A stretch of DNA of 64,000 bases, taken from Diprion similis. Lineage: Eukaryota; Arthropoda; Insecta; Hymenoptera; Diprionidae. Location of the stretch: positions 5,146,001-5,210,000 of the forward strand of contig NC_060105.1 of the NCBI RefSeq assembly GCF_021155765.1, read 5' to 3'. A program made the position numbers and the translations under genes. Every line of letters starts with the position of its first letter. Position 1 is the first letter of the stretch. The notes beneath the pieces were generated by a model. The model was not told the DNA's origin. It saw only the letters and a program-made list of their open reading frames with translations, and searched no databases. This document shows positions 3,895 to 59,839 of this stretch, one piece after another.

Positions 3895-6800
3895 TTACTC
3901 GGGTAGAAGATCATCTCCGAGTTCTTCGTCGCCAAAGTCCTCGTCTTTCTTCCCTGCAGAAGTCATGGGGCGCATAGGCAGAGGACCGACAGGATCCGAA
4001 TAAGAAGTATCTGTGAAAATTAGAGCTTGGATTTTGTCGTCTATTTAGGAGAAAGAAAACGAAAAGAACCAGTAAAACGAAGCTAAAAGTGTTTCCAGCG
4101 CGGAAAATTTTCACTTGCGTCGCAAGATTATCACTGCAACAATCAGCAGAGTGTTAAAGAAGACATATGCGAGCCAGGAATAGATTCTGTGGACGAGTTA
4201 GGTACATCTATCATCTAGTCAATCCATTAAGGTAATAATACAGGGCCATCAAACAGCGTGTATACATCATTCTGTTTAATATCAATCGCAACTGAAGCTG
4301 TGCAATGCTGCAATGATAATCATTACTTTGATAATGTTTGCGCGATACTAAGGCTTGCAGAATATTTTTAATATTATGTGTTTGAAAAGAAAATTTCGTA
4401 ACGGAGTGTTTGATATCAAATTTTTTATACTAGTAGATAGAAGTCACGAGACGTGGTTACAGCGGAATATTCCAGAATCAACTATGGAAAGTTTTAGTCT
4501 AGTTTCAACTTGAAGAAATAATTTTGCCCAGACACACTGGAAATCAGTGCAGGATATGTGCTGTAATTAAAGTGGATAATCTGAAATATTTCTAGAGAAT
4601 ATGTTCAACGGATTTTTGCAAATACATAATACCAATTCAGAGGAATTAATACCGTTTTGACAATAGAAATAGATTTATACTGTACCTTTGGAAACAAAGT
4701 CCGATTCATTAGGAAAATGATAAATTGAGTAATGAAAAGACATCTGCATTCGAAGCGACTGCATAAAAATCTAAGCTCTCTATTCCATCAGACAATGATG
4801 ACTAAAAAAGTAGGTTAAAATAGTAAACATCATGCTTGCTTGCTACCTCGAACGATTGTAATTTTTAGTAAATAACGACTAGCAAATGGTAGAATAAGTT
4901 GTGTGTCTTCCTTGAGTAACAAGATAACTTGAATATATTTACGGCCCGATAAATTATGTGTACATAGATATTTGGCTTTTGTACAAATCCCGTTAATCGG
5001 CTTGTTTTCGTATGACGTGAACAAGTATTTGGTTCGCTTGACACCTGTAAGATTAGGTTTAATAATCAAATAAAACAAATTACGTAAGTAATGGTGAGTT
5101 ATAATTAATAAAAATCTTGTGTTTTTCCAGTTCCTCAGCTGTAAATAAATCAAACATATCGTTCAGATACCCCACTTAGGTGATAAATTTCAATGGAAAA
5201 ATTGTATCCATTGAAATCGCAGTGTGTGCAAGAGAAATAGTAGATATAGGTATGCAACTCAATGTACGAGAAATCTAGACACACCAAAAACATTTCTGTA
5301 TAAAATTCCGGAGTATTATAATATAATTTTTGTAATAACTGAAGCACCTAGACCATGTTTGTGCCAAAGTAGGTATATTAAACTTTGGTACGAGTTCTAA
5401 GATCACATTAAAAATTGCTTGAACCAACTTACAATTATCATCAATCAATATGCAATCTTTTTATTGATTGAAAAAGAACCTTTCTGGATTCTTGCTGGTT
5501 GTAGAATCGAAAATATGTTGATAGTTTAATAAGTAACCATCCACGTGAGACAAATGCAATTACATCTCAATAAGAAATTTCACAGTAATCCAGCTTTGCC
5601 GTTAAAAGAAAATATGTAAGCAAAAGATCATTGAGTAACTTACTGATATGCGTATTTGTCTCAGGTGTGAATTCCAGCGGACTTTCAAGCATGGCCAAAC
5701 GATTCGCCCTAACCGCACCTCCGTTGTACAATCCTTGCTGATCGTTCCTCCCTGATGTAGGGCTGGTTTGATGCTCCGACCTGATGCTGAGCCCAGAACC
5801 AGCTCGTGAAGAAGTGCCACTGTTACTTCGCCGTGAGCCTGGATTCGGACAGGACGGTTTAAATTCGACCAATAAATTTAATTGAACATTTTGTTCAATA
5901 TGATTGTTTAGGAATTGAAAAGTGACCGATATTAATAGCTCACCTGTAGTTCCAGGGCGACCTGAACCCTGTCTTTCCTTCAGCTCTTTAGCCTTTTCAG
6001 CTTTTTTAAGCTCAGCCGCATAGAGCTGTGCTTCTTTCAGACCCAAATCACTGCACAGTCGAACTAAGAACTTAAGACACTCGATATTTTCAGGAAATTT
6101 CTTATGGATGTCTTGATATTCTGTAAGAGCTTTGTGAAACTGGCCGGTTCTTCTTAAACATGCCGCAGCAAGTAGCCGCCATCTTGGTTGATCAGGTGCC
6201 AATTCAACGGCTCGTTCGAAGTATATTAGCGCTTTTTCTGCCACCTGAGAATCAACAATTGTCGGTGATGGAAATAAGAAAGTATGGAATAAAATGAAAT
6301 ATAGAAATATATAGGCACCTGCATCGATATAAAGTAGGAACCCAGCCAATCGATCACCTCAAAGTTTGCTGGATAATATCTATAAGACTGGAACAATGTT
6401 TCGGCAATTATTTATTCGCCAGCTTTTTTTTATTAATTGTTTCATTATTTAATCAACAGTGCCACCAAAGTGGACTCGTAATGATGTATAATTAATTCTT
6501 ACATCACTGTAAAACTGATAGGCTTGCTGTTTGTCTCCCAACGTATCATACATCTCCCCTAGCTTTTGTAAAACACCAGGGTCAGATGGGATTATGCCAA
6601 GCAGCTGGTTGTACCTGCCAAAATTAACAAGTAGCGTTAATACAGATATTTCATACAAGCTGTTCCAAAAACCTATTGTGAAATGAAAAAGTACCATTCC
6701 GCCGCTTGATCGGTGTCATTTATGAGCTGATAGAGGTGTCCAAGCTGATATAACGTCTGGGGGTCATACCGAATAATATTCCGCAATTTCCAGAAACACT

Positions 6801-9800
6801 CCACGGCTTCCTCATAGGCGTGAAGCTTTTTATAAACTAATCCTGGATGAAAAGTATTCCGATGATAAGATGTTGCAACTCTGCTTTTTGAAGAATCAAT
6901 AAGACAAGTAGAATTGGGTATAGAACAAACCAAGATTATAAAGAGCTTGAACGTGGCTTGCATCGCTGTCTAAAGCGCACAGTAAATATTCTCTTGCCCT
7001 CTCCAACTCTCCCTTCTTGATCGCACACGCTGATAAATTTACATATGCTGCTGCGTTGTAACTGTCTGCCTGACGAGCAGTTTCTGCACATCTTTCGGCC
7101 TGGTCGTATTCACCTTGCTGTAATGAGAAATGATATTCATGAAAGTAGATTGAACAAGATGCTAAAAAGATCTCAACTGCGTAATCAATGGGCGATATAA
7201 ATGTATCATAATTTAAAATTACCAGAAAGTAAATGAATGATAGCATGGTAGATGCTGCACTGTTTGCACTGGTTTCACGATTCTCAAAGACTTTCAAAGT
7301 GTCTATGGCAAGCTGCGTTTCTCTGTTATGTAGAAATACCATAGCTTTGTTGATTTCAAGATCAGCTGCCAGTGGTCCATATGCAGACGATTTTATCATG
7401 TCAACGCACCTGATGAATTATAAATAAGGAGTAGGACTAGCAGGACATGACTTGAAGAGAGTAAATATTTCCCCTCCAACAATTCCATTTGCATTACATT
7501 TGATTGACACGTGAATCCAAAAGTTTACTCGGACTAAAATTATATACAGGTATAGTTTCTCACCAAGCAAATCCAGCTGACAGAGTATCTTCAATAACAG
7601 GCGCGATTAATTTTGCGGCAGTAAGAATAGTTTTCTCTGCTTCTTGTTTCATCTCTTTTTCCAGCTTTGATAGCTCGTCATTTTTAATCACTTCATTCAA
7701 TATATTTGCCATGACATCTTCCTAAACATTGATTATACGTGTTGAAATAGGATTTCGATAGGAGTAAAAAAAATTCACACTTAATTTCTGCGAGATTATA
7801 TTGTCAAGTGCAGCCGTTCTTGAACAGTACGTGAAGTTAGATCACATCTATTCAAAGATTTGGATAAATTCTACAAATATTGACTTCATCAACTTAATGT
7901 GCTCTAAGTTGTTCTTACACAAAAAATATTTTCTATGAACATTATAAAACATTGCGAAATTTTGATGTGTGACAGTTATCTATGGATCAACATTGACAAA
8001 AATTAAAGTGGTGCAAGAGACAAGCATTAAATATTGTTAGCGACATGAATTACGAGTTTTAATCTTTGCAAACGGGATGGTAAATTTCTATTAGGAGCCT
8101 GAGGGTGCGCGAAGCATGACACGAATTAAACTTGTTCATAGTATGTGCAGTTTATAAGTCAAGTGCAGAAGGAATATTTATAATGTTTATTTTAAGACAT
8201 TTATAAGTATTTTTTGATGTGCAGAGATAGAACAGAGTCTAAGACTTAAGCGATTTTCAAAGTTTCGTTACATACGCTCAACTCACAGTGTTAATGTTAT
8301 ACTTGTCCTCCTGATCAATGTTAAGCTGCACTTCTAACAATTCTAAAAAACCTCGTTTCATTTTGTCTCGATGAGACAATGCAAAATGACAAAGTACGGC
8401 ATGCAACCCTGCTTTGAATTCAGCCCTCTCTCGCATCACCCATTCAAAGCTGTTTGCAGCCTCTTCTAAGCGACCCATTTGCACAAACAGCATTCCTATG
8501 TTATGCATTATTTTTATTCTGCGAATAGTTTTACGTTGTTAGTAGGTAATTACAATTACTAACTGAACAACGAGTTATTAGAAATTAAATCCGTGAAAGT
8601 AATACACTGGAATACATCTGCAATTTAAATAAGTACTGTAATTGAATGTCTCGTGTTCACCTGAGATCCTTCTGAGCTGTAGGAGCTTGATCCAGAGCCA
8701 TACGATACATTTTTATTGCTTGGGGCAGCTGCCCCATCTTGACATGAATGTTGCCCATGTTTACTTTCAATCTCGCACTATTGTTGAACATTCTGTTCCT
8801 AGTAATTGCTTGGTATGTGGCTAAGGCTTCTGTGTACATTTCATTATTAGCATACTGGCTAGCCAAGTTGAAAAGTACCTGCGAATAAAATTGTATTTTT
8901 ACAGAATCACCAATTTCACTAAGAGTTCAGTTTTCTCACTCACTACAGAAAATTCATTCTGTGACTCACAGCGAATGTTAGATCAACGTTATGATTGTCA
9001 CTGAGCCCGGCTTGTTCTTGTAAACGTATAAGAGCTCGTTCCCTAGACGAAGCTTCTCTCGCTCTCTCAAGGGCAACACGAGGGTTATTCTCACAAATGG
9101 CCTGCACAGAAGTCTCTATCAATTCCATTATTCTCTGTTCTGCGATCTTTATCTTTTCTTCAGGTCTAGAAATAGTGATTAATTATTCAAGAGGAATAAT
9201 GCGTCCACTTAAAATAACCCAAAAATCTAGCTAAATCAACCCACTTAATCTCCAAACACAAATCACTTACGTATCCTCTTTACCAGTTTCTAACGGTGGT
9301 GCAGGGCCTCTTGAACTACTGTTCATATTCAATGGATCAAAAGGTTGCCTACTACTGCTGGTATAGCCAGCCCCACGCACCGCAGTCATTGGTCTCGGAC
9401 CTGTACCTGGCCGGCCGATCATTCCAGTTCCATTTCTGTGAAACTAAACCAGGAACAATTGCACATGTTTAGCGTTGAGCTTAGTAGTTGAACAAACCGT
9501 GCTCTTAATGAGCAGGGTAACAAATACTTTGCAGATAGGTTTCATAGAGGATATATCATGGATTGTGCATTGATAATAACGTAGCGAAGTATGACTTACT
9601 CCGCTCGAAGTTCCAAGTCGCATAGCAGTACCAGGTTTTTTTGGTGTCATCTGAAACATGATACGATATCACAGTAGATTTAATGCATCTTTCAAAGTGT
9701 ATCAGATACCATTATTACGGTAAAGTATTACTCAGGTAAGAAAGACTTTGAAATCTTACAATGGGCCGTTTTGCGTAGCTGGCTTTGATCGCTTCTTGAT

Positions 9801-45200: not shown

Positions 45201-48200
45201 ATTAATCACACATCGTCTGTTTTTGTTAGTATGCGAAGCTTAGTACATCACCTTGCTCAACGGCTCCTTCGAATCTATTCCACCTCTTCCATTCAATGGG
45301 GGAACTTTGGTTTTTATTTTGAATTTGTTTCATTTGCATTGTCTTCATAGCCATCGAAACTTTAAGCTCTGGTAAATAACTATCTGCCTCCTTGTTCTCC
45401 AATAATTCGAATATATTTGGTGGAAGATTGAGGAAAAGGTTGAGTTGGTAATTTTGTAATTCACTAAATAAATGGTTCATCTATTATTTTTTGATACAAT
45501 TCGGTGATTGTTATGATCTAATTAGCCAATAGATTTATGATTTAATCTTCAGTAGTCATAATAAAATTTACAAAATTGGTTTTTATTTAAAAAAAAAAAT
45601 TTCATTTCGTACTTACAATTCCAAGGTCCACTTTATAGCTGGTATATAAGGTTTATTTGCATGGACTACTTCTTCCTTTGCTAAGAACTCGATTTTGTAC
45701 CAACTTTCTGAAAAATATTTACATGAACCATGTGGATTAGAATTATGCAATATATGGCACATAAGAAAATTGAAATTAAAATTATACCCACTAGGTCTTC
45801 TTCTCCAATGGAGAGAGACATGACTCGTAGACTCATACTTCTTTCTGGTTTGGCTATTATTGGACAATTCACCGTCGTCATCATCACTATATTCTTCAGA
45901 GTTCGACTCGTCTCCAGAGAAGACATTGGACATGTGATTCTCTGTTACATGATGCTCTATATCTGCTTCATTCTCGGAAGCAAACTTGCAAATTTTGCAG
46001 CTGAAGTTCTATACAAATACGTACATATTGAACAGGTGGGTTGATTAGAAATGTGACCAGAATCCTCATACGTGAGGAATAATACTAAAGATTTAAATTA
46101 CCTTCCGGGGAGTAAAGTTACAAAAAGAATAATGTTCGTATATGTCATCAATGAGTGAAAAGCTGGCAGTGCAACCGGGTTGTCGACAGTGGGCAGTCCC
46201 CGTAGTTGCGAGTTGTTTTTTCCATATTGATTTAGTGATACCAGGAATTGATTTCTTAAGCTGTGGCTTTTTGATCAATTTTTTCTGTAACAATAGAGAA
46301 TAAAGATAATGTGATTAAAATTATTCCGCACTAACTAGCCCAAGTCAACTCAATTTATCTTACAATTGACGGAGATGTTGGTCGTGACTTTTTGGAAGGT
46401 GGACCATCAGCTTCTCCCACAAGAGTGGTAAACTCGGATATTCTTGTAATCGCCCTACAAATGCAAACATAAATGTTCCATCACCATAATAAAGTGAATA
46501 AGAATAAACTTTTCACAGTTTCATTTATGAGTATTCACCTCTCTGCAGCTTTGCGCTTTGAACCAGATGAAACGGGTTTAGATGAAGAATTTTCTGCAAT
46601 CGTCAAACGTGATGGCTCTAGTGGTTGCTGCCTATGCACTCGGTGGTGGACTTCCAACGACGATGGCATCATAGTTCTGTGGCATATGGGACACGTCATT
46701 AGCAAAGCGTCTTTTTCCTGTAAAATTGTATTAAAATTAAAAAATATTTCCAGAGACTGAACAGTCTGCACAACTAACTTTTTTGATCAATGAAATGGTA
46801 GTATGACAATAAATATTAGCTGTTACTAATTCCATAGATAAATTAGAATACAATTAACTTTGTAGTATTATTTACTGACCGCTATGGTTTTCCCGCAAAA
46901 CTGTATGTGGGATACAAAACCAACAACGCTTCGTTTTTTATTACCACATTTTTCGCATATAAGGGTTCCTTTTTTTCTCTTGTGAGCAGCAACCAGGACT
47001 TTAGTCAACAATTTTTGGTCATTTTCGAAGTCCTGAAAACACGTGAAACATTTTAACCCAACTCGTACATACACATTTCAATGTAAGTGAATTTTTCAAC
47101 TATACTTACTAATATAGGATCACCGTCTCGCCAAGCCATGTTATTATGTGAATTCAGATTGTGCATTGACCATTTATTCTTCGGCATTTCTTTGCTGCAC
47201 TTTGCACACTTTACAGTTTTATCCTCAGCCTAAGAACAAAAGCAGTGAAATGCTTCAACACAATAACGCAGAAATATACATGTGAAAAACTTTGATACTT
47301 ACTTGTGGCTTATCATTGTCAGATTTGTTAGCCACTGCCAACTTATCAACTTTGGGCGATGTATCAGCCATTATCGATGCATCAGATATCACCGATGTAT
47401 GAGCTATTTCCAATTCGTCTGTAGAATTTTCTCTGCTTTCAACATTGCAACTAACACCTGCCCCTCTACCTCTACCTCTGCCTCTGCCTCTACCTCTACC
47501 TCTACCTCTACCTCTGCCCCTGCCTCTTCCTCTTGCTCTACCGCTACTTTCTTCTGTTTTCAATGATGTACCATTATCGAGTGTAGCATCTTGTTTTGGA
47601 ATTTCATCATTATTGACAACGTAATCGTGTAATTCCATATCAGGTGAAAGACTTCTCACAATTTCGACACTTTTCCGTGATCTTCTTCGTGTATTATGTA
47701 CATTTTGAGTGATAGTTGATGCCACTACTGCGTCATCATTTTTAATCATATTTTTCGTCTGCTGATCATCCAATGGTAGCGTCATTCCTGAATTACGCTC
47801 ATGAATCCTTTTTGAATCAGCTGGCACAGTATTTCGTATGATTCTATTTTTTAATTTATCTGTGGATATGCTGACATGACCTTCAATTTGTAGATTCTTA
47901 TTAAATTGACTAGAATTTTGTACTTCAGACGATAAATCCGCCAAATTAATGTCTCTGCGTTTTTCAATGTTCCGAGGAGTACTACATTTTGATGATTTAA
48001 GTATAGAGGATAGGATGGGAGTCACACTTTGGCGGTCACCACTACCATTTTTAAGAGAATTGCTCTTTAGTAAAATTCTATGATTTTCAATCTGCGTATC
48101 AGTGACGGCAAAACGAACTTTGCGAATTTTATCCTCTTCATTTTTGACCACATTTTCAGTCGGCAACACCAGTCCCTCGACTGTTTCTCCTAAGGCTTCA

Positions 48201-48226
48201 ACTTTTGTAGCATCTACTTTCGCCAT
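42258..48226 (-). CDS. GTF3C2: TFIIIC subunit 2-like protein (zinc fingers plus WD40)
   Basis: TFIIIC recruits RNA polymerase III to tRNA genes. Nineteen exons: 47303-48226, 47110-47229, 46880-47032, 46539-46717, 46364-46454, 46102-46284, 45788-46008, 45617-45703, 45252-45463, 44675-44852, 44316-44570, 44061-44180, 43811-43953, 43443-43629, 43274-43361, 43026-43154, 42779-42955, 42560-42664 and 42258-42428. They give 3723 nt (1240 aa). The N-terminal 308 residues are charged and disordered, with about a dozen RG dipeptides near residues 230-258. Residues about 309-575 hold five C2H2/C2HC-type fingers (CAKC, CEKCG, CPICH, CRQPGC, CKIC). From about 725 come WD-type repeats: GGPVWAMAWLPIP, IWCMEWCPSG, LATACSDGCVHIYSM, VAGFSNGYIAVWN and LATAGFDRYCKFWD. 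The WD part fits GTF3C2/TFIIIC110. The finger array is unlike the human protein, so the name is an assignment by architecture. The intron between exons 7 and 8 (84 nt, in frame) may be retained. Confidence 0.82.
47455..47545. repeat. Hexanucleotide-like repeat encoding an RG tract
   Basis: Tandem CCTCTA/CCTCTG units on the plus strand read as Arg-Gly dipeptides in the minus-strand GTF3C2-like exon 1. The alternating synonymous variants show the tract is under protein-level selection or is old enough to have diverged at third positions. Confidence 0.85.
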
Positions 48227-49553
48227 CAGGGATCCTTAATCTTCAATGTTTTACAACACCTTGTCAATAGCTGATAAATAAAAAATGAATCAATTTTTTC
48301 TTTCCTGGCTAGAGTTCAAATTCTTATTTTCAATCAATATTGAATATTATTGAGAAAAATCGACTGTGACAGGTCTCTTCGATTTTTTGTTTTTGGATAA
48401 AAATTTTCGAACTCAAATACTTACATTGTTGTTCGATAATTGCAATTATTGCATACATTTACTATTAAGTAAAAAATTGTGCTCATGATCCAATCGGTGT
48501 CTTCGGGTGGAAGTTTACTACTGCTCATCAGTCTATTCATATAGCTTAATTTATTAAAATTTGGGCCCTATCAAACTTGCCATTAATCTGGTCCATCTGA
48601 ATTAAATAACATAGATATTACAATGCAAGTATTCGAGAATGCACATTATCGACAAATCGAGGTCCAGCATAATTGTTATACGAATAGCATCTGGAGAGGA
48701 GTAAAATACAAAAAATCTATGCAAAATATGCATAAGGGAATTATATAATTGATATGTAATCAAATAAATCAACAAATTTCAGAATAAAATAATACGAAAC
48801 TTGGGGACTTGAACATGAGATCAACGTATGATGAAACAGCTACTGTGCTATATTCACCAAAAACGTATCAGATTAGCTGCTAAATTTGAAGAAAATTTTA
48901 TTGCGAAAACAGATTTTTCAAGATAAATTAACAAGCTCCAGTATGATAATTGAATTATGATTTAATTGCGAACCAGGTAGTATAAGAATTTCGAAGTGAC
49001 AATTACCTTCCACCTCATAGTTTTCAGGTTATGTACTCACTTTAGACAGCACACGTGATTGTGATATTACTCGTCCTATTAGCAAGCTACGACGTGAGAG
49101 AAAAAAAGTAATAACAAATTACTCTTAGAAAATGTTTGCGGATTGATTTGAGCTTGTGAAAAAATTGTCCACATAATATGACCGAAGGTCTCGAACCGCT
49201 GCAAACTTGACTCCCTTGCCTTTCTATTTCATTGCCTACCGCACCATGCCAAACTACGCGCAGATTGAATGGAAATGGCAGCCTCCATTTATTAAATTCT
49301 GTCCATTGACAGTGCGCATGCGCGTATAACGATTTTCCTGGATGGCTAAGATCTTTCCATAGGTATGTTTATTGAAACTTCACGACCCGGTAATTGGCTG
49401 GAAGCATACGACGCAAGTGGCTTTTGAATTGCGAAGTTTGCATCATTCATATTTATATACAAAATTAATGCTAGATGGAGTAAAGTTGAACACAGAACAT
49501 CGGTTTATTTTTTTGTTAGACTTATGGTTTTATTTCACAAGTTCAATATAAAT
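48227..49553. other. Intergenic region
   Basis: It should contain the leader and promoter of the GTF3C2-like gene on the left and the RpL7 3' UTR on the right (AATAAA on the minus strand at 49504-49509). No gene is supported between them. Confidence 0.5.
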
Positions 49554-57365: not shown

Positions 57366-57371
57366 TTTATT
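57366..57371 (-). terminator. Poly(A) signal, distal isoform of ATP synthase c
   Basis: TTTATT on the plus strand reads AATAAA on the minus strand, about 515 bases past the distal stop codon. It is followed by T/GT-rich DNA. This is the best candidate for the end of the transcript that uses the distal last exon. Confidence 0.5.
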
Positions 57372-57885: not shown

Positions 57886-59839
57886 TTAGAAGGCGAACAA
57901 CAGAAGGAAGGCCATCATAAGACAGAAAAGACCCATAGCTTCGGACAAGGCGAAACCAAGAATGGCATACGAGAACAGCTGCTGTTTAAGGGAGGGGTTT
58001 CTCGCATAACCAATGATCAGGGAACCGAAGACCGATCCAATTCCAGCACCTAAAAACAAGAAAATAGTTCATTAGGAAAACCAAACCACTGTGCTTCATG
58101 GGTGCAATGCAAAAAAATATCTGATAAACACTGATATAGAGTAAAATTGTACCGCAATACTTTTTTTTCATTACAGTTATAATTGTTTGATACTGTACAG
58201 AGACTATATTAAGAGTTAGTGACACTGGAGATACCTGGGACAACCACCTTTGCAATCAATATTCATATAATTGTCAGATGATGTTTCTCTCTTGCCTATT
58301 CTCAATTGAGTGATGCAGGCAGGTTTGATATTAGATTATCGTTTAGCTACATGAAATATACATCATGACAAATAATAGTATGGAATAAATTTTTGCTAAA
58401 CTATACAATAGCAAAGCATAAGTGAGCTCTGTTATGTTTAATTGTTGCAAATACAAATTCAACCAATGAAAATCACGTCTTGACGTAAATATATTATACA
58501 CATATAGTTCTATTCTATAAAAGTATGTACAAATTTTTATTATACTATGATGAGTTAGACTGCGAGTAACTGTCGCAGAAATTTGATCACACACTGCACA
58601 GTGTAGCTCTGATCACATAGGACATCGAGTTTGACAGGGAAACCATGTCTGGGATAAATGGACCAGGAGGAGGGTAGTCAGAGGGCAAACAGCATTAGGA
58701 ACGCAATCATCAAGCAGAAAAGACCCATCGCCTCAGATAGGGCAAATCCGAGGACTGCGTAGGAGAATACTTGCTGTTTCAGGGAGGGATTTCGGGCATA
58801 ACCAATAATAAGGGAACCAAATACAATCCCAATACCAATTCCTGAAATGTCAGAGGTACAATAGTGTATAAGTCAATCAAGTTGTTAATATTAGGTAGGT
58901 ACTGCGTCATCGTCGATAACGTTCTACGTTGCACACTTTAGTATGTACAAAATACGCCTGAATTAATGACTCTGGTTAAGAACTGGAGTAATATAAATAA
59001 AGAAAATTAACGTAATCATCATCAATTCGATGAGAAAGCTTGACGATGATCAACTAATGTTTCTAGTACACAAATATTGTACCGCCAAGGTTATGTAAGA
59101 CATTGCATAATGATTTGTGTCTAAAAATTTTTATAGCGTAAATGAGAGGGAATAAAGAATATAGGTATTTGCAGGAAGATAACTGAACATGATAGGAGTC
59201 TCGTCACTTCTCATCACAACTTACCGGATCCAGCAACTCCGACAGTTGCAGCGCCAGCGCCAATAAATTTAGCAGCAGAGTCAATGTCACGACTCACTGC
59301 TGAAGTCTGGAAGCTGCGTACGGCAGGCAGCTAGAATGGAAGTAGCACAAATGAGAATTCAAAGTACAGCTGCAGTATCGTACTTGACACTCAAAGTACA
59401 ACAAATGAAAATCACATATCAATTTTTAAGCATAAGGACGCCAAAAGTTGGCAAAGATGTGAAATATGATCAAGATTAAATGTGTTATTGTACTTATTCA
59501 AACTCAGGCGAGCAAAAATTTGAAATATGTTATGTAACCTTCGGATCATTATGCAACGAAAGACTTTGATATTTACCAGGCTGACTGGGGTCTGCCTCTG
59601 ATTTTGTTGCAGGGACTGGCTTTGGTTGACCACAGCACTGCTCAGAGGTCGTAGGTATGACTTGGCTCCAGAAACCAGCTGGATAAAGTCATATGCAAGT
59701 TAAAAGACGAGGATTACATAATGTATGTACGGACGTATCATTCGGACATCTAGATATAGGAGGTGACGGGATGGAACAAACGTATTTTACTTACGGTAGA
59801 CCTGGCAATTGGGGCAACGAATCTGGTGCAGGCGTACAT
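57886..59839 (-). CDS. ATPsynC: Mitochondrial ATP synthase subunit c, distal last-exon isoform
   Basis: Subunit c forms the proton-driven rotor ring of the F1Fo ATP synthase. Coding exons 59795-59839, 59577-59678, 59225-59330 and 57886-58049 give 138 aa. Residues 1-63 are the mitochondrial transit peptide. The mature protein starts at [12 protein letters not shown] (residue 64), as in other animals. The distal exon supplies [15 protein letters not shown] and the second helix, with the proton-carrying Glu at residue 121 (mature 58) in [10 protein letters not shown]. The ATG exon begins after a TTTTTAG acceptor near 59870, so a noncoding first exon lies upstream with its donor at 60351-60355. 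An alternative last exon lies at 58678-58841. The distal form is closest to the conserved animal sequence and is probably the main isoform. Confidence 0.95.
58536..58541 (-). terminator. Poly(A) signal, proximal isoform of ATP synthase c
   Basis: TTTATT on the plus strand reads AATAAA on the minus strand, about 140 bases past the stop of the proximal last exon and before the distal exon. It would let the proximal exon act as a complete alternative 3' end. Confidence 0.5.
58678..58841 (-). CDS. ATPsynC: Alternative (proximal) last exon of ATP synthase subunit c
   Basis: This exon has a good acceptor (ACATTTCAG), enters in the same phase as the distal exon, has the same length (164 nt including stop) and ends in TGA. 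It encodes the same 54-residue segment with seven conservative changes. In full-length numbering these are A86I, S90I, L109V, I114V, M130I, L134M and F138L. The essential Glu121 and the RNPSLKQQ loop are unchanged. Two changes fall in the glycine-rich GxGxG packing motif of helix 1. Many third positions differ from the distal exon, so the duplication is old and both exons look maintained. I infer mutually exclusive 3' terminal exons giving two subunit c isoforms. Confidence 0.85.

What the first reader, a model, noticed from the sequence alone, without database searches (positions are those of the whole stretch)
57886..58841. Two tandem, equal-length alternative last exons for ATP synthase subunit c
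Both exons have good acceptors, the same entry phase, 164 nt and stop codons. Each is followed by its own AATAAA. They encode helix 1 (end), loop and helix 2 of the rotor subunit with seven conservative changes, two of them in the glycine-rich ring-packing motif. A splice-controlled choice of c-ring subunit would be an unusual way to tune ATP synthase. Vertebrates make isoforms from separate genes that differ only in the transit peptide.
Basis: partly seen in the sequence, partly recalled or inferred. Interest (0 to 1): 0.75.

Follow-up and report, generated by a model that had tools for sequence, protein, structure and literature searches.

The report
Two alternative ATP-synthase rotor subunit exons
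An arthropod's gene for the ATP synthase rotor protein carries two interchangeable final exons, one encoding the standard animal rotor protein and one a variant altered where rotor subunits pack together, so RNA processing could let one animal build two different rotors.

Summary
Three shared exons can run into either of two 164-nt last exons (58841-58678 or 58049-57886), each with the same entry phase, an acceptor, its own stop and its own AATAAA. Each gives a 138-aa precursor; the mature proteins differ at 7 of 75 positions. Synonymous sites are saturated (pS 0.75) while dN is 0.09, and the flanks share nothing beyond short chance matches: an old duplication whose copies both stayed under protein-level constraint. 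No other mitochondrial c-subunit locus was found in the genome. The distal mature product is identical to the brine-shrimp subunit, so the seven changes most simply lie in the proximal copy. Two (Ala23Ile, Ser27Ile, bovine numbering) fall in the glycine motif of the ring-packing helix and give an Ile/Ile pair found in 9 of 25 tabulated solved sequences, none of the 8 animal ones. One c10 ring has Ala23, so the site does not dictate ring size. Best reading: a genuine alternative-last-exon choice between two mature c-subunits, probably tissue- or stage-specific. A ring-size change is possible but unproven. No transcript data and no relatives were available.

The parts
59795..59839 (-). Coding exon 1 (start codon at 59839; start of the presequence)
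   Evidence: Open frame and donor; joined frame gives a 138-aa precursor
59577..59678 (-). Coding exon 2 (presequence)
   Evidence: Acceptor and donor in frame
59225..59330 (-). Coding exon 3: end of presequence and mature residues 1-21 plus one base of codon 22; donor GTAAGT from 59224
   Evidence: found again in the own-genome search
58678..58841 (-). Proximal alternative last exon, mature residues 22-75 of the variant c-subunit (I23, I27, V46, V51, I67, M71, L75), stop TGA
   Evidence: over the PF00137 cut-off
58536..58541 (-). AATAAA, 137 nt after the proximal exon
57886..58049 (-). Distal alternative last exon, mature residues 22-75 of the canonical c-subunit, stop TAA
   Evidence: mature product identical to brine-shrimp chain 9b0x_1
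57366..57371 (-). AATAAA, 515 nt after the distal exon

Best explanation
The one nuclear gene found for mitochondrial ATP synthase subunit c has an old tandem duplication of its last coding exon. The donor at 59224 is joined either to the proximal exon (cleavage after the signal at 58541) or to the distal exon (cleavage after 57371). The two precursors share presequence and mature residues 1-21 and differ in the part from 22 to 75. Shown from sequence: anatomy, frame, constraint on both copies, one locus found. Inferred: both mRNAs are made; the choice is regulated by tissue, sex or stage; the proximal protein enters c-rings, pure or mixed, where Ile23/Ile27 alter helix-1 packing and so ring stability, lumen or possibly size.
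For: Exact length, phase and frame match; splice and poly(A) signals; saturated silent sites with low dN, 0 of 20000 neutral trials as clean; if the proximal copy alone drifted with 21 changes, 2 of 20000 trials as clean; no flank similarity beyond short chance matches; no other c-subunit locus in the own-genome protein search; E58, K43, R38 and the motif glycines kept; both products over the PF00137 cut-off. Precedents for regulated variants of ATP synthase rotor parts: PMC4956034 and PMC7969005, passages seen.
Against: No transcript, protein or relative seen. With only 15 changes on a neutral proximal branch, 403 of 20000 trials would look as clean. Two nearby AGs outscore the proximal acceptor. 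The own-genome search scores best candidates only.
Confidence: 0.76

Rival explanations
1. The two products are equivalent in the ring; the exon pair exists to give the gene two 3' ends, hence two regulatory 3' UTRs or expression levels.
For: The seven changes are hydrophobic replacements (Ser27Ile the least mild) and active-site residues are kept; the 3' UTRs are unrelated; mammals regulate one mature c-protein from three genes (passages).
Against: The canonical protein is identical in brine shrimp, so seven changes in one copy, two in the packing helix, are unusual for a protein without a distinct role. Duplicated coding is not needed to obtain a second 3' UTR.
Confidence: 0.2
2. The proximal exon is a decaying relic or unused duplicate.
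For: No expression data; weaker acceptor score than the distal one; the neutral one-branch test is not decisive if few changes (15) fell on that branch.
Against: Open frame without indels, intact acceptor, stop and poly(A) signal, saturated silent divergence with few replacements.
Confidence: 0.05
3. The proximal exon is included without cleavage and spliced on (for example from a donor near 58247) to the distal exon, acting as a coding last exon with a spliced 3' UTR or as a decay switch that lowers c-subunit supply.
For: A donor-like GT at 58247 scores at the 97.3 percentile.
Against: It lies beyond the AATAAA at 58541; a pure decay switch would not keep the protein sequence.
Confidence: 0.05

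Closest known systems
Podospora anserina Atp9-5 / Atp9-7 (PMC4956034, passages seen)
   Same: One organism with two different mature c-subunits, differing at presumed packing positions; there expression and ATP/O differ.
   Different: Two separate genes, 66% identical, in a fungus; here one gene, two last exons, 68 of 75 residues identical, in an animal.
Mammalian ATP5MC1-3 (PMC9006661, passages seen)
   Same: Several sources of the c-subunit in one animal.
   Different: Three genes give one identical mature protein.
Drosophila ATPsynC (PMC6086398, passages seen)
   Same: A single arthropod locus, 138-aa precursor, four exons.
   Different: Its transcripts are said to encode probably one mature protein.
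Tissue-specific exon 9 of the gamma-subunit gene ATP5C1, and OGDH exons 4a/4b (PMC7969005, passages seen)
   Same: Exon choice alters a rotor part, or a duplicated exon pair tunes a mitochondrial enzyme.
   Different: Other subunits or enzymes; the gamma exon changes the C-terminus only, and the OGDH pair is internal.
Drosophila testis-enriched ATP synthase paralogues d, F6, b, g, epsilon, beta (PMC5364652, passages seen)
   Same: Tissue-specific ATP synthase parts in an insect.
   Different: Separate, faster-evolving genes; neither c nor gamma is in that list.

Membership tests
F-type ATP synthase subunit c (PF00137) | Family profile over cut-off in both products | tested here: met
   51.5 and 48.5 bits against a cut-off of 24
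F-type ATP synthase subunit c (PF00137) | Essential acid 58, R38-N-P loop, motif glycines; metazoan K43 | tested here: met
   Kept in both products
Alternative last exons from tandem exon duplication | Homologous last exons, same phase, each with acceptor, stop and poly(A) signal | tested here: met
Alternative last exons from tandem exon duplication | Both transcripts made | not testable with these tools
   No RNA data
Mutually exclusive internal exons | A common exon downstream of the pair | tested here: not met
   Both exons end in stops; no downstream coding exon is needed
Duplicated c-subunit genes (Podospora, mammals) | Separate loci | tested here: not met
   Only this locus found in the own genome (best candidates only)
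Ring-size isoform ('second gear') | Packing-motif residues otherwise seen in larger rings | tested here: inconclusive
   Ile23/Ile27 in 9 of 25 tabulated sequences, none animal, but one ring with 10 chains per entry has Ala23
Ring-size isoform ('second gear') | Ring of a different number of subunits | not testable with these tools
   Needs structure or native mass spectrometry

The most novel reading that the evidence does not exclude
An animal makes two kinds of ATP-synthase rotor ring from one gene. The proximal exon swaps the animal c8-type packing residues for the Ile/Ile pair of fungal and several bacterial rings, giving a ring of different size, or mixed rings, and so a different H+/ATP gear in chosen cells, against the view that ring size is constant in a species.
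Probability: 0.13. Interest if true: 0.95.

Novelty: new variant of a known kind. Interest (0 to 1): 0.62.

Why it matters
A review says ring size appears to be set by the c-sequence and to stay constant in a species (PMC7003800, passage), and another says the metazoan ring has eight subunits (PMC9006661, passage). A natural animal gene offering two mature c-subunits that differ at packing positions would let that be tested in one organism. Even without a size change it would be an animal whose mature c-subunit varies, a protein otherwise identical between brine shrimp and this animal.

Tried and rejected
Relatives. The one scan of prokaryote genomes with the proximal peptide gave 7 loci. The two best (L016, L017) encode a c-subunit in one open frame with S23/S27 and A23/T27; L017 also shows other open frames that look like mitochondrial respiratory genes to me (not searched). 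The other five, 39-43% identical, were not read. Viral-contig scans gave 0 loci (proximal query) and 2 loci (distal query; both with V23/V27). No arthropod relative was found, so conservation of the pair is untested.

A23 as a marker of c8 only: rejected, because 6f36 (10 chains per entry) has A23/V27. I had expected that sequence to be trypanosomal; it was not.

Recent duplication, haplotype or assembly artefact: rejected by saturated silent sites and unrelated flanks.

Organism: 269 Mb in 60 contigs. A COX1 frame reads through under code 5; that and the arthropod-identical distal product point to an arthropod, order not determined. PF12278 (recalled as a Hymenoptera marker) gave no match, and the tool calls that uninformative.

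Literature. Ten searches. Six bear on c-subunit isoforms or splicing: 0 papers each; 20 of 79 listed; 20 of 385; 3 of 3; 12 of 227. Three concern ring size or packing (7, 14, 16) and one testis paralogues (60). None of the listed titles and abstract openings reports an alternative last exon of an animal c-subunit; unlisted papers were not seen and most subscription papers are not held. Watt 2010, Walpole 2015 and Pogoryelov 2012 are not held and were not read.

Rows left out of the table. Displayed but dropped as near-duplicates or a double hairpin: u142745, u143156, u134987, u1931, u10254, u141138, u8235, u73213, u59718. Listed but never displayed, so residues unknown: u138846, u111839, u112092, u165440, u56770, u37376, u37098, u116630, u21437, u128120, u169967. 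Structure prediction was not run: the mature proteins span an intron, so they are not read letter for letter from the DNA as that tool asks.

Full report
Observation. The gene lies on the minus strand. Common coding exons are 59839-59795, 59678-59577 and 59330-59225, with a strong donor (G|GTAAGT) at 59224. Two last exons follow, 58841-58678 and 58049-57886, each 164 nt and entered in the same phase, after introns of 383 nt and 1175 nt. Each gives a 138-residue precursor with a 75-residue mature part. Each ends in its own stop, with AATAAA 137 nt and 515 nt further on. Coordinates, lengths and the seven differences in the finding are correct.

Site quality. On a hand-made matrix the proximal and distal acceptors lie at the 97.2 and 99.4 percentiles of 3162 AGs on that strand of the window. 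Two nearby AGs (58982, 58648) score above the proximal one, and a donor-like GT at 58247 (97.3 percentile) follows it. Site scores therefore do not by themselves prove use.

More than chance. The exons differ at 43 of 164 nt, 10, 3 and 30 by codon position. Of 47 codons that keep the amino acid, 28 differ silently; pS is 0.75 (saturated), dN 0.093. With the 42 coding differences placed at random in 20000 trials, the mean was 26.3 amino-acid changes, none had 7 or fewer, and 14088 had a stop. If only the proximal copy had drifted, the number of trials as clean as the real exon was 403, 2 and 0 of 20000 for 15, 21 and 30 changes. Flanks of the two copies show only short matches (best: 12 nt, E 0.03), while the exons align at 75% over 158 nt. 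The copies are old and both have been kept as protein.

One locus. A protein search of the window's own genome (269 Mb, 60 contigs) returned three matches: the two last exons and the common exon (the tool scores best candidates only). The other four PF00137 hits, on C10 and C11, were not returned by that search; I take them for vacuolar-type proteolipids (inference). The exon choice would then set the c-subunit for the animal's mitochondria.

What differs. The mature distal protein is identical over all 75 residues to chain 9b0x_1 (checked in 67), the Artemia franciscana enzyme (PMC12325954 passages). The distal exon is thus the canonical arthropod form, and the seven changes most simply lie in the proximal copy: A23I, S27I, L46V, I51V, M67I, L71M, F75L in bovine numbering. 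Glutamate 58, lysine 43, arginine 38 and the motif glycines are kept. Residues 23 and 27 are one helical turn apart on one face of helix 1 (inference from helix geometry).

Comparison with solved rings. I tabulated 25 solved c-sequences (from; dropped and unseen rows are in Tried and rejected). Residue 23 is Ala in 9 (8 animal or animal-like and 6f36), Ile in 13, Val in 2, Met in 1; the Ile23/Ile27 pair occurs in 9 (recount): three fungal, three B. pseudofirmus variants, E. coli and two mycobacterial (organism names are recalled except where a paper gives them). Chains per entry are exactly 8 for 5 of the 8 animal rows, 24 for one, and not whole for two. Ile/Ile rows with a whole quotient have 9, 10, 12 or 13. 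The counterexample is 6f36, 10 chains per entry with Ala23/Val27. The site goes with ring size in this sample but does not dictate it, and all c8 rows come from one branch of life. Residues 1-21, also part of the packing helix, are shared by the two isoforms, which argues for an unchanged ring. The proximal product fits the family profile slightly better (51.5 against 48.5 bits).

Mechanism. With a poly(A) signal after each exon, the choice can be made by splicing or by early cleavage. In flies many alternative-last-exon choices are argued to be poly(A) choices (PMC9470587 passages). Tissue, sex or stage specificity is my inference. Precedents: two fungal c-genes with different ATP/O (PMC4956034 passages), an alternative exon of the vertebrate gamma-subunit gene (PMC7969005 passages), and fly testis paralogues of six other subunits (PMC5364652 passages).

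A possible companion. The same genome has two intact gamma-subunit frames in tandem on C8, 44% identical over 275 aligned positions; the second scores 205.8 bits against a PF00231 cut-off of 39.9. The delta/epsilon N-domain family and OSCP gave one hit each; PF00006 gave eight hits at four places, which I did not classify. Gamma and c are both rotor parts, so a second, specialised rotor is worth testing; nothing here shows that the two go together.

What is known. Drosophila's c-gene is reported to give probably one mature polypeptide (PMC6086398 passages) and humans make one mature protein from three genes (PMC9006661 passages). Smaller residues near the glycine motif are said to allow smaller rings, and ring size is said to be set by the c-sequence and constant in a species (PMC7003800 passages). 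Searches listed no animal case like this; the listings were capped, the library omits most subscription papers, and no eukaryote genome annotation could be searched. An unremarked second isoform in a public annotation is quite possible.

Verdict. The feature is real and most likely functional. Shown: a constrained alternative-last-exon pair for subunit c. Open: use in the animal and any effect on the ring.

Noticed in passing
L012 1318-2319 and 2915-3745 (G000:C8, about 14.724-14.727 Mb): Two tandem intact ATP synthase gamma-subunit frames; the second is only 44% identical to the first. A possible specialised rotor companion to the variant c-subunit.
   Followed up: partly
L011 1501-2037 (G000:C7:8182164-8182700): A partial COX1 match with five in-frame TGA on a large contig, perhaps a nuclear copy of mitochondrial DNA.
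   Followed up: no
L010 (G000:C45, 25279-base contig): Mitochondrial COX1 frame under code 5; near its start it seems some residues shorter than the insect form I recall.
   Followed up: no
window 47255-48235, minus strand: A 326-residue open frame with a long arginine-glycine repeat; its only Pfam hit is below cut-off and looks compositional.
   Followed up: partly
window 5567-7417, minus strand: Open frames with tetratricopeptide repeats, likely exons of one gene; from memory the sequence resembles IFT88.
   Followed up: partly
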